Translations under genes and position numbers: made by a program
Assembly: GCA_036273515.1 (NCBI GenBank)
Contig: DASUHM010000031.1
Coordinates: forward strand, 1-45,203
DNA length: 45,203 bases
From: Gaiellales bacterium
GTDB lineage: Bacteria; Actinomycetota; Thermoleophilia; Gaiellales; JAICJC01
Direction of reading: 5' to 3'
Shown: positions 28,975 to 33,503 of the stretch, one piece after another
How the letters are laid out: each line of letters opens with the position of its first letter
Numbering within the stretch: the first letter of the stretch is position 1
Notes under the pieces: model-generated
The model's database searches: none
Told to the model about the DNA's origin: nothing
Seen by the model: only the letters and a program-made list of their open reading frames with translations

Positions 28975-29457
28975 ATGTTCATCAACAGCACCCGATTCGG
29001 TCAGCTCGAGATCCGTGACGACTCGATCATCGTGTTCCCGGAGGGGCTCATCGGTCTCGGCGGGAGCCGCTATGCGCTCGTCGCGCGTGACGACAAGTCT
29101 GTCTTCTTCTGGCTGCACTCGATCGACGATCCGTCGCTGGCGCTGCCCGTGACGAAGCCGTGGCCGTTCTTCACCGACTACGAGGTCAAGCTGTCGGACG
29201 ACGACGCCGCCACGCTGCAGCTCGAGTCGCCCGAGCAGGCCGAGATCTTCTGCGTCGTCCGCGCCGCCGACCAGCTCGGCGACTTCACGATCAACCTGCG
29301 CGGCCCGATCGTCATCCACGGCGAGAGCCGCCTCGGCCGCCAGGTGATCAACGAGGTCGGTGGCTACGGCGTCCGCGAGCCGCTGTTCGCGCGCGTCCCG
29401 CTGTCCGAAGTCCGTCCTGCCACCCCGGCCGCCCCGGTTGCGGCCACGGGGGTGTAG
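28975..29457 (+). CDS. fliW: Flagellar assembly factor FliW
   Basis: A 160-residue FliW: FINSTRFGQLEIRDDSIIVFPEGLIGLGGSRYALV, then FWLHSIDDPSLALPVTKPWPFFTDYEVKL and NLRGPIVIHGESRLGRQVI. FliW binds both flagellin and CsrA; when flagellin is exported, freed FliW takes up CsrA and lifts repression of flagellin mRNA. The gene lies between flgL and csrA. A short CTCC-TGAA-GGAG hairpin (28952-28963) precedes the start. Confidence 0.93.
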   Translation: MFINSTRFGQLEIRDDSIIVFPEGLIGLGGSRYALVARDDKSVFFWLHSIDDPSLALPVTKPWPFFTDYEVKLSDDDAATLQLESPEQAEIFCVVRAADQLGDFTINLRGPIVIHGESRLGRQVINEVGGYGVREPLFARVPLSEVRPATPAAPVAATGV

Positions 29458-29459
29458 GC

Positions 29460-29681
29460 GTGCTCGTAATCACACGACGAGCCGGCGAGCGCATCTGCCT
29501 CGGCGACCAGATCACCGTCACGGTGCTCGAGGTCTCCGGGTCGAGCGTCCGCCTCGGCATCGATGCGCCCGGCGACGTGCCCGTGTACCGGCACGAGATC
29601 TGGCTCGCGATCAAGGAAGAGAACGCCGCCGCCGCGCTGGCGCCGGCCTCGAGCGTCCCAACTGACATCCCCCCGAACTAG
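29460..29681 (+). CDS. csrA: Carbon storage regulator CsrA
   Basis: A 73-residue RNA-binding protein: LVITRRAGERICLGDQITVTVLEVSGSSVRLGIDAPGDVPVYRHEIW is the complete CsrA core, with Arg6 and the C-terminal Arg of VYRHEIW available for GGA recognition. A disordered 20-residue tail follows. GTG start two bases after the fliW stop. Its probable target, hairpins with AAGGA loops, is in the leader of flagellin 2 (33414-33465). Confidence 0.95.
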   Translation: MLVITRRAGERICLGDQITVTVLEVSGSSVRLGIDAPGDVPVYRHEIWLAIKEENAAAALAPASSVPTDIPPN

Positions 29682-29712: not shown

Positions 29713-30534
29713 ATGTCCCTTTCCGTCCAGACGAATATCGAGGCGTTCGACGCCCACCGCAACCTGCTGAACACGTCGAACCAGCTGTCCGAGTCCATGC
29801 AGAAGCTGTCCTCGGGCTACCGGATCAACAAGGCCGCCGACGACGCCGCCGGCCTCGCCATCTCGGAGAAGCTGTCCGCGCAGGTGAGCGGCCTGACCCA
29901 GGCCCAGCAGAACGCGCAGGACGCCGTCAACCTCGTGCAGACCGCCGACGGCTCGATGGGCGAGGTGCAGGCCATGCTGCAGCGCGTCCGCGACCTCGCG
30001 GTCGAGTACAACAACGGCACGCTGTCGACCGCCGATCAGGCCGCCATCACGGCCGAGGTCGCCCAGCTCTGCGCCGAGATCAACAACATCGGTAGCGACA
30101 CGACCTTCAACGGCATCGCGCTGCTGACCGGCACCGCCACGATCACGTTCCAGGTCGGCGCCAACGACGGCGAGACCATCACCACCTCGGCCGTCAAGCT
30201 GTTCGGCTCGGGCGCCGGGTTCGCGGTCGACTCGTCGATCTTCAGCTTCTCCGGCTCGACGATCAACCTGTCGGCGATCGACGCCGCCATCGAGAACGTG
30301 TCCACCGACCGGGCCACGTTCGGCGCCGTCCAGAACCGGCTGCAGCATACCCTGAACAACCTGGGCAACTACCAGGAGAACCTGTCCGCGGCCGAGTCGT
30401 CGATCAAGGACGTCGACATGGCGGCCGAGATGGTCAACTTCACCAAGCTGCAGGTGCTCCAGCAGGCCGGCATGAGCGTCCTCTCGCAGGCCAACCAGTC
30501 CTCGCAGTCGGTGCTCTCGCTGCTGCGGCAGTAG
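29713..30534 (+). CDS. fliC: Flagellin 1
   Basis: A 273-residue flagellin with intact D0/D1 ends (MSLSVQTNIEAFDAHRNLLNT, KLSSGYRINKAADDAAGLAIS, and the C-terminal ENLSAAESSIKDVDMAAEMVNFTKLQVLQQAG followed by MSVLSQANQ) and a short central region, so D2/D3 are minimal. The AAGGAGAA ribosome-binding site is eight bases before ATG. I see no sigma-28 site in the short csrA gap, so it is probably read with fliW-csrA. About 90% identical by eye to flagellin 2 (32595-33413), which lies inverted 2 kb away. Confidence 0.95.
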   Translation: MSLSVQTNIEAFDAHRNLLNTSNQLSESMQKLSSGYRINKAADDAAGLAISEKLSAQVSGLTQAQQNAQDAVNLVQTADGSMGEVQAMLQRVRDLAVEYNNGTLSTADQAAITAEVAQLCAEINNIGSDTTFNGIALLTGTATITFQVGANDGETITTSAVKLFGSGAGFAVDSSIFSFSGSTINLSAIDAAIENVSTDRATFGAVQNRLQHTLNNLGNYQENLSAAESSIKDVDMAAEMVNFTKLQVLQQAGMSVLSQANQSSQSVLSLLRQ

Positions 30535-30663: not shown

Positions 30664-31308
30664 ATGAGCTTCTCGCCTGACGCCGTCTCCCCCGCGAGCT
30701 TCACCGATGCCCTGAGCCGCATGCAGCAGCTCGAGGCGATGGTCGACCAGATCTCCTCGCCGAGCCTCCTCAGCGCCTCGCCTGGCGCGCCGGCGACAGC
30801 GTCGGGCTCCGCCTCGTCGTTCCAGCAGGCGCTCGCCGCCGCCGGCGGCACGAACGGGGTGGCCTCGTCCGGCGACACGAGCGGCAACGCGGGTCTCGCC
30901 GCCCTCCAGGTGGCCGAGAGCCAGGTGGGCGTCACCGAGCAGCCCCCGGGCTCGAACGACGGCCCTCAGATCGCGATGTACCGCACGGCCACGCAGGGCG
31001 CCTACGCCGGCGCCCCCTGGTGCGCCTACTTCGTCTCGTGGTGCGCGAATCAGGCCGGCGCCCCGATCGGCGACCACGGCCAGGGCCTCGGCTCCGTCGC
31101 CGAGATCACCGACTGGGCCCGCTCGACCGGCCGGCTGACGCAGACGCCCGCTCCCGGCGAGCTGATCCTGTTCGGCACCGAGCACGTGGGCATCGTCAAG
31201 TCGGTGAACGGCGACGGTTCGCTGACGACGGTCGAGGGCAACGCCTCGAACGGCGTCCGCGAGGAGACCCGCTGGCCCTCCGAGGCCACCGGCTACGTGA
31301 CGCTCTAA
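30664..31308 (+). CDS. CHAP-domain peptidoglycan hydrolase linked to flagella
   Basis: A 214-residue protein. Residues 1-75 are low-complexity Ser/Ala-rich with a short helix (ALSRMQQLEAMVDQI) and no signal peptide. Residues about 78-210 form a CHAP (NlpC/P60-like) amidase domain: Cys120 in APWCAYFVSWC, His174 in TEHVGIV and Glu191 in VEGNAS are the likely catalytic residues. Between flagellin and other flagellar genes, without a Sec signal, it is probably exported through the flagellar apparatus to open the wall for the rod, replacing the muramidase half missing from the rod-binding protein at 25753. Confidence 0.8.
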   Translation: MSFSPDAVSPASFTDALSRMQQLEAMVDQISSPSLLSASPGAPATASGSASSFQQALAAAGGTNGVASSGDTSGNAGLAALQVAESQVGVTEQPPGSNDGPQIAMYRTATQGAYAGAPWCAYFVSWCANQAGAPIGDHGQGLGSVAEITDWARSTGRLTQTPAPGELILFGTEHVGIVKSVNGDGSLTTVEGNASNGVREETRWPSEATGYVTL

Positions 31309-32594: not shown

Positions 32595-33413
32595 CTAGCG
32601 GAGCAGCGAGAGCACCGACTGCGGGGCCTGGTTGGCCTGCGACAGGACGCTCATGCCGGCCTGCTGGAGCACCTGCAGCTTCGTGAAGTTGACCATCTCC
32701 GACGCCATGTCGACGTCCTTGATGCTCGACTCGGAAGCGGACAGGTTCTCCTGGTAGTTACCGAGGTTGTTCAGCGTGTGCTGCAGGCGGTTCTGGACGG
32801 CGCCGAACGTCGCGCGGTCAGTCGAGACGTTCTGGATGGCGGCGTCGATCGCCGACAGGTTGATCGTCGAGCCCGAGAAGCTGAAGATGGCGGAGTCGAC
32901 GGCGTAGCCGGCGCCCGAGCCGAACAGCTTGACGGCGTTGGTCGTGATCGTCTGGTTGTCGTTGGCACCCACCTGGAAGGTGATGGCCGCGGTACCGGTC
33001 AGCAGAGCGATGCCGTTGAACTGCGTGTCCGTGCCGATGCTGGAGATCTCGGCGCAGAGCTGCGCGACCTCGGCCGTGATGGCGGCCTGGTCGGCGGTCG
33101 ACAGCGTGCCGTTGTTGTACTCGACCGCGAGGTCGCGGACACGCTGCAGCATGGAGGTGACCTCACCCATCGCGCCGTCGGCGGTCTGCACGAGGTTCAC
33201 GGCGGACTGGGCGTTCTGCTGAGCCTGGGCCAGGCCGCTGACCTGCGCGGACAGCTTCTCGGAGATGGCGAGACCGGCGGCGTCGTCGGCGGCCTTGTTG
33301 ATGCGGTAGCCCGAGGAGAGCTTCTCCATCGAGCTGGCCAGCATGCTGCTGGTCTTGACGAGGTTCCGATGAGCGTCGAACGCCTCGATGTTGGTCTGGA
33401 CGGAGAGGGACAT
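32595..33413 (-). CDS. fliC: Flagellin 2
   Basis: A 272-residue flagellin, about 90% identical by eye to flagellin 1; most differences lie in the first D0 helix (NLVKTSSMLASSMEK versus NLLNTSNQLSESMQK) and the small central region. The ATG (MSLSVQTN) is set by alignment; the open frame continues upstream through the leader. It has a near-perfect sigma-28 promoter and a leader with CsrA-type hairpins, unlike flagellin 1. It is followed by a strong hairpin. Confidence 0.95.
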   Translation of the reverse strand: MSLSVQTNIEAFDAHRNLVKTSSMLASSMEKLSSGYRINKAADDAAGLAISEKLSAQVSGLAQAQQNAQSAVNLVQTADGAMGEVTSMLQRVRDLAVEYNNGTLSTADQAAITAEVAQLCAEISSIGTDTQFNGIALLTGTAAITFQVGANDNQTITTNAVKLFGSGAGYAVDSAIFSFSGSTINLSAIDAAIQNVSTDRATFGAVQNRLQHTLNNLGNYQENLSASESSIKDVDMASEMVNFTKLQVLQQAGMSVLSQANQAPQSVLSLLR

Positions 33414-33465
33414 ATCTTCCTCCTTGAAGATAGGTGTGTGTCCTTTGCGACCGCGTCCTTGCGGT
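33414..33465 (-). promoter_or_regulatory. CsrA-type hairpins in flagellin 2 leader
   Basis: Two perfect small hairpins on the transcript each display a GGA loop. ACCGC-AAGGAC-GCGGT (33465-33450) is the upstream one. ATCTTC-AAGGAG-GAAGAT (33431-33414) ends at the ATG, and its loop is the ribosome-binding site. A third, unpaired AAAGGAC lies between (about 33446-33440). CsrA dimers recognise A-N-GGA in 5-6 base loops, often one site upstream and one on the ribosome-binding site, exactly this layout. Confidence 0.7.
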
Positions 33466-33476
33466 GCGCGCACCGG

Positions 33477-33503
33477 TAATCGGCCGGCCCCCTCCGCTCT
33501 TTA
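33477..33503 (-). promoter_or_regulatory. Sigma-28 promoter of flagellin 2
   Basis: Minus strand TAAA (33503-33500), N15, GCCGATTA (33484-33477): one mismatch from TAAA-N15-GCCGATAA. Transcription would start near 33470, giving a leader of about 57 bases. Confidence 0.8.

What the first reader, a model, noticed from the sequence alone, without database searches (positions are those of the whole stretch)
33411..33503. Flagellin 2 leader carries two AAGGA-loop hairpins behind a sigma-28 promoter: a FliW-CsrA circuit
Seen: a one-mismatch sigma-28 promoter gives a leader of about 57 bases with two perfect hairpins, each with AAGGA in a 6-base loop, one exactly on the ribosome-binding site, plus a third AAGGA between them. 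Known: in Bacillus, CsrA represses hag through an upstream and a ribosome-site hairpin and FliW relieves it. fliW and csrA lie beside flagellin 1. The inference is that flagellin 2, not the csrA-adjacent flagellin 1, is the main CsrA target. This architecture in an actinobacterium-like genome is not something I know to be described.
Basis: partly seen in the sequence, partly recalled or inferred. Interest (0 to 1): 0.75.

Follow-up and report, generated by a model that had tools for sequence, protein, structure and literature searches.

The report
CsrA-controlled leader of flagellin 2
The messenger RNA of one of this soil bacterium's two flagellin genes starts with a conserved folded switch that the regulator CsrA probably holds shut until the flagellum is ready, while the near-identical flagellin beside csrA lacks the switch, a split found in every related genome examined that has both copies.

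Summary
The minus-strand leader of flagellin 2 has a sigma-28-type promoter (33503-33477), hairpin 1 ACCGC[AAGGAC]GCGGU (33465-33450), an AAAGGAC between, and hairpin 2 UAUCUUC[AAGGAG]GAAGAUA (33432-33413) on the ribosome site. It is not chance: across 155 Thermoleophilia flagellins the upstream ANGGA-loop hairpin occurs in 86 of 119 copies away from csrA (1.9 expected), with covariation in both stems, and a covariance model matches only this place in the window's genome. The CsrA-FliW reading is well supported by homology; no binding was tested.

(1) The 'third AAGGA' is better explained as one arm of a helix locking the start codon (GGACA/UGUCC): genes starting AUGUCC carry GGAC (56/67), genes starting AUGGGC carry GCCC or GGCC (18/20). 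(2) The flagellin directly behind csrA lacks promoter and upstream hairpin (0/25); in all 24 genomes with both kinds only remote copies have the switch, although their coding sequences intermingle in the tree.

It is a lineage variant of the known B. subtilis hag leader; CsrA control of an actinobacterial flagellin was already proposed for Kineococcus in 2008.

The parts
33477..33503 (-). sigma-28-type promoter TAAAG-N14-GCCGATTA
   Evidence: same kind of promoter before 96 of 119 remote flagellins, 0 of 25 csrA-adjacent ones (2% in shuffles)
33447..33469 (-). hairpin 1 (putative high-affinity CsrA site 1): core ACCGC[AAGGAC]GCGGU 33465-33450, extended by 3 bp
33439..33443 (-). 5' arm GGACA of helix P3 (within the 'third AAGGA', 33446-33439); pairs with the start codon region
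33413..33432 (-). hairpin 2 (putative CsrA site 2 on the Shine-Dalgarno): UAUCUUC[AAGGAG]GAAGAUA, ends on A of AUG
33408..33412 (-). 3' arm UGUCC of helix P3 (UG of the start codon plus codon 2)
32595..33413 (-). flagellin 2 (272 aa), the regulated gene
28975..29457 (+). fliW
29460..29681 (+). csrA (73 aa, only CsrA of the genome; Arg44 and Asn55 kept)
29713..30534 (+). flagellin 1 (273 aa, 90% identical to flagellin 2), 31 bases behind csrA, without sigma-28 promoter or CsrA-type hairpins

Best explanation
The leader is a CsrA-operated translational switch of the B. subtilis hag kind. Sigma-28 makes a transcript with about 57 leader bases. One CsrA dimer can grip hairpin 1 (loop AAGGAC) and hairpin 2 (loop AAGGAG, the Shine-Dalgarno) and so block the ribosome. 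A further helix, GGACA with UGUCC, stacks on hairpin 2 and ties up the start codon, giving a closed ground state that CsrA would stabilise. FliW, freed when flagellin is exported through a finished hook, takes CsrA away and flagellin 2 is made in bulk. Flagellin 1, read from the flgK-flgL-fliW-csrA operon without this leader, escapes this control. Shown: anatomy, conservation, covariation, specificity, presence of CsrA and FliW with key residues. Inferred: CsrA binding, FliW relief, bridging by one dimer, the role of P3, and the timing.
For: Upstream hairpin in 86/119 remote leaders vs 1.9 expected, 0/25 csrA-adjacent. Stem arms fit only their own partner: 5.2 vs 2.0 bp for hairpin 1, 3.9 vs 1.9 bp for hairpin 2 after swapping arms between leaders. 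Covariation score 0.349 vs 0.141 in shuffles and at most 0.125 in slid registers. Loops match the CsrA consensus, ANGGA in a 5-6 base loop (PMC7652899). Leader model: in the own genome only this place scores (E 0.0014; next E 3); in 399 Thermoleophilia genomes 62 have a hit at E <= 1e-3, 61 of them among the 86 with a flagellin match and 1 among 313 without; the strong hits that were fetched (L207, L211-L241) sit at a flagellin start. Flagellated hit genomes have CsrA, except two incomplete ones, G002 and G113. P3: AUGUCC with GGAC 56/67, AUGGGC with GCCC/GGCC 18/20, permutation 0/2000; RNAfold expects P3-type pairs in 73% of remote leaders against 16% of csrA-adjacent and 11% of other phyla.
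Against: No binding or expression data. The window's own leader is one of the weaker members (35 bits; relatives up to 77). 33 of 119 remote leaders lack a recognisable hairpin 1, and 45 of 119 lack a hairpin 2 of at least 4 bp. A 7-bp stem is longer than most CsrA SELEX ligands (four or fewer pairs, PMC7652899). P3 has exceptions (two leaders with GCC as second codon keep GGGAC; the GGT class is weak), and its GCCC form is mostly one lineage.
Confidence: 0.87

Rival explanations
1. The leader is a protein-free structural switch: hairpin 2 and helix P3 alone sequester the ribosome site and start codon, for example as a thermosensor or to set a low basal rate, and hairpin 1 only protects the 5' end.
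For: Hairpin 2 plus P3 form a near-continuous 12-bp closed structure (-10.8 kcal/mol); P3 covariation points to pairing as such.
Against: The loop of the strongest hairpin holds GGA in 91/116 leaders where chance gives about 16%, a protein-recognition signature and not a structural need; hits co-occur with CsrA; the corresponding hag and fliC sites are CsrA sites, footprinted in B. subtilis and predicted in C. difficile (PMC7652899, PMC8523840).
Confidence: 0.08
2. All three AAGGA motifs are CsrA sites and the leader also titrates CsrA, as the C. jejuni flaA leader does.
For: Three AAGGA in the window leader; titration of CsrA by flaA mRNA is known in C. jejuni (PMC4894983).
Against: In leaders whose gene starts AUGGGC the middle motif is GCCC or GGCC, without GGA, in 18 of 20, as expected for a pairing arm and not for a CsrA site.
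Confidence: 0.12
3. The hairpins are ordinary: a strong Shine-Dalgarno AAGGAG gives GGA for free and GC-rich DNA gives stems by chance.
For: SD sequences trivially contain GGA; folding energy alone is only z -1.8.
Against: Shuffle expectation 1.9 against 86 observed; arm-swap and covariation tests; csrA-adjacent copies of the same genomes have 0/25.
Confidence: 0.01

Closest known systems
Bacillus subtilis hag leader (CsrA sites BS1 and BS2, FliW antagonist)
   Same: sigma-D/28 promoter, two CsrA sites with one on the Shine-Dalgarno, fliW-csrA beside a flagellin gene in a flgK-flgL-fliW-csrA order (PMC7652899, PMC8523840)
   Different: hairpin 2 is a strong perfect stem; an extra start-codon helix P3; the regulated gene is a remote copy while the csrA-adjacent flagellin is leaderless
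Campylobacter jejuni flaA (two stem-loops, main CsrA target) versus flaB
   Same: two GGA stem-loops; the sigma-28 flagellin is the main target while the second flagellin is a weaker one (PMC4894983)
   Different: the other flagellin there is sigma-54-dependent; here it lies in the fliW-csrA operon
Kineococcus radiotolerans fliC (proposed BS2-like site)
   Same: actinobacterial flagellin with csrA in the flagellar island; CsrA control proposed from a BS2-like sequence (PMC2587704)
   Different: only the ribosome-site match was noted; no upstream hairpin, covariation or leader split was described in the passages read
Clostridioides difficile fliC leader (BS1 TGACAAGGATGT, BS2 CTAAGGAGGG)
   Same: predicted two-site CsrA leader with FliW (PMC8523840)
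   Different: no start-codon helix and no split between two flagellin copies mentioned in the passages read

Membership tests
CsrA-repressed flagellin leader (hag type) | upstream hairpin with A(N)GGA in a 5-6 base loop | tested here: met
   33465-33450, loop AAGGAC; conserved and covarying
CsrA-repressed flagellin leader (hag type) | second GGA site overlapping the Shine-Dalgarno | tested here: met
   33432-33413, loop AAGGAG
CsrA-repressed flagellin leader (hag type) | sigma-28 (sigma-D) promoter giving a leader that contains both sites | tested here: met
   33503-33477; 96/119 in relatives; the start site itself was not mapped
CsrA-repressed flagellin leader (hag type) | CsrA present with RNA-contact Arg44 and FliW-sensitivity Asn55 | tested here: met
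   alignment; Arg44 role in PMC7652899, N55D allele in PMC6529632
CsrA-repressed flagellin leader (hag type) | FliW present | tested here: met
   PF02623 2e-30, solved FliW 5dmb E 7e-18
CsrA-repressed flagellin leader (hag type) | CsrA binds the leader and blocks the ribosome | not testable with these tools
   needs gel shift, footprint, toeprint
CsrA-repressed flagellin leader (hag type) | FliW relieves repression | not testable with these tools
   needs csrA and fliW mutants and a reporter
Known Rfam RNA family | match to one of 4227 curated families | tested here: not met
   only one hit, below its gathering score and on the other strand inside the gene

The most novel reading that the evidence does not exclude
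Flagellin 1, coupled to fliW and csrA and free of CsrA control, is a dedicated sensor: it soaks up FliW while the hook is unfinished, so CsrA keeps the bulk flagellin 2 shut by a start-codon-locked leader; export of flagellin 1 opens the switch. The coding sequences of the two kinds are kept alike (gene conversion or repeated duplication) while the leaders stay strictly different by position.
Probability: 0.2. Interest if true: 0.72.

Novelty: new variant of a known kind. Interest (0 to 1): 0.52.

Why it matters
It carries the best-known flagellin checkpoint of Firmicutes over to a deep actinobacterial class with covariation evidence. It adds a start-codon helix not reported for hag in the papers read, and shows a strict split between a leadered and a leaderless flagellin (24 of 24 genomes). 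The split offers a natural way to separate the sensing and the producing role of flagellin, which B. subtilis combines in one gene.

Tried and rejected
Folding energy alone was not decisive (z -1.8). Rfam gave nothing. The first start-codon assignment was off for some outgroup genes and was redone. MAFFT mis-registers hairpin 2 because its loop is 5, 6 or 7 bases, so the arm-swap test was used besides. A control set of other genes with an ANGGA ribosome site was small (21), and its single hairpin hit was an out-of-frame reading of a flagellin leader. In genomes with flagellin but no detected CsrA (G004, G146, G346) the leaders examined lack the hairpin, but these are few and one is a broken copy. 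The sensor idea is not required everywhere: 24 of the 76 genome groups have the leaderless csrA-adjacent copy beside remote ones; many others have only leadered copies in hand, so it stays a minority reading.

Full report
What is there. The leader of flagellin 2 reads, on the minus strand, TAAAG-N14-GCCGATTA (33503-33477), then hairpin 1 ACCGC[AAGGAC]GCGGU (33465-33450), AAAGGACA (33446-33439), hairpin 2 UAUCUUC[AAGGAG]GAAGAUA (33432-33413) and the gene AUGUCCCUC. RNAfold forms both hairpins and a helix GGACA/UGUCC that encloses hairpin 2 and takes up U and G of the start codon, the A being the last base of hairpin 2. The window is from a Thermoleophilia genome (G000; nearest named records are Thermoleophilia MAGs). 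On the plus strand flgK, flgL, fliW, csrA and flagellin 1 follow one another, the order known from B. subtilis. The genome has one CsrA.

More than chance. I collected 155 Thermoleophilia flagellin starts. Copies that are not directly behind csrA have an ANGGA-loop hairpin at -80 to -20 in 86 of 119 cases (1.9 expected from dinucleotide shuffles), 79 with stems of 6 bp or more (0.3 expected); a ribosome-site hairpin of 5 bp or more in 52 (1.8 expected). Chosen without regard to its loop, the most stable hairpin of the region has GGA in the loop in 91 of 116, against 16% of background hexamers. Swapping 3' arms between leaders drops the mean stem from 5.2 to 2.0 bp (hairpin 1) and from 3.9 to 1.9 bp (hairpin 2). 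On a 65-leader alignment the covariation score is 0.349 against 0.141 shuffled and no more than 0.125 when slid; all seven pairs of hairpin 1 show changes on both sides.

Specificity. A covariance model of the leader finds in the own genome only this leader (E 0.0014, next 3.0). In 399 Thermoleophilia genomes, 62 have a hit at E <= 1e-3; 61 of these are among the 86 genomes with a flagellin match and one (G042, E 8e-4) among the 313 without. The strong hits that were fetched (L207, L211-L241) begin at a flagellin start. The model was trained on leaders from these genomes, so finding them is expected; the absence elsewhere is the result. Of the flagellated genomes with a hit at E <= 0.002, all but G002 and G113 (each 82% complete) have CsrA.

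Helix P3. The motif between the hairpins is GGAC in 56 of 67 leaders whose gene starts AUGUCC, and GCCC or GGCC in 18 of 20 whose gene starts AUGGGC; pairing with the own start region beats permuted start regions in 2000 of 2000 trials. Predicted P3-type pairing is found in 73% of remote leaders, 16% of csrA-adjacent ones and 11% of those from other phyla. The GCCC form lacks GGA, so the motif acts as a pairing arm rather than a third CsrA site. Limits: the GCCC form is mostly one lineage (Solirubrobacter-like) with a few separate cases, the GGT class is weak, and two leaders with GCC as second codon keep GGGAC.

The split. Flagellins within 140 bases of csrA have no upstream hairpin (0/25) and no sigma-28 promoter (0/25, against 96/119 for remote copies). 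In all 24 genomes with both kinds, the close copy lacks the hairpin and at least one remote copy has it. Yet on the protein tree close and remote copies intermingle, with at least 9 changes of label forced by starred branches, so the coding parts have been homogenised or re-duplicated while leaders stay by position. Where csrA lies further away and the gene has its own promoter, the leader can be present (hairpin in 7 of 11), as in Bacilli.

Wider range and literature. The same upstream hairpin is seen in Arthrobacter, Paeniglutamicibacter and Actinotalea flagellins, in Bacilli, Clostridia and spirochaetes. Known: two CsrA sites in hag (PMC7652899), predicted in C. difficile fliC (PMC8523840), two stem-loops in C. 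jejuni flaA, where flaB is a weaker target (PMC4894983), sites near the Shine-Dalgarno of T. denticola flaB1 and flaB2 (PMC9481697), and a BS2-like site proposed for Kineococcus (PMC2587704). The survey of actinobacterial flagella lists CsrA and FliW, with no leader found in the passages read (PMC10746217). I found no report of the start-codon helix or of the leadered/leaderless split in the held library, which lacks most subscription papers.

Mechanism. FliW binds flagellin and CsrA in turn (PMC6529632, PMC6070490). Flagellin 1 and 2 are 90% identical, so both should bind FliW. The likely scheme is CsrA repression of flagellin 2 through the two loops on a pre-closed start region, relieved by FliW after hook completion. 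That flagellin 1 serves as the FliW sensor is my inference and only one possible use of an unregulated copy; it may equally be a minor first filament subunit.

Noticed in passing
399 Thermoleophilia genomes: 184 genomes have CsrA but only 86 a flagellin match; many have a second CsrA outside the flagellar operon. A non-flagellar CsrA role in this actinobacterial class seems likely.
   Followed up: no
L124, L144, L153 (Solirubrobacter-like genomes G242, G322): Up to eight flagellin leaders per genome match the model, mostly in tandem arrays, with the GCCC form of P3.
   Followed up: partly
L075, L076, L088, L091, L098, L102: Arthrobacter-type and Actinotalea flagellins carry GGCCC[ACGGAC]GGGCC-like hairpins upstream, so the CsrA-type leader reaches class Actinomycetia.
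   Followed up: partly
window 30664-31308 (+): A CHAP-domain protein (peptidoglycan amidase-like) lies between the two flagellin genes.
   Followed up: no
L196, L201, L202, L242, L245: A second group of divergent flagellins (f5 family genomes) shares a different leader ending in GGCGAGAAAGGACUUC without the upstream hairpin; its control is unexplained.
   Followed up: no
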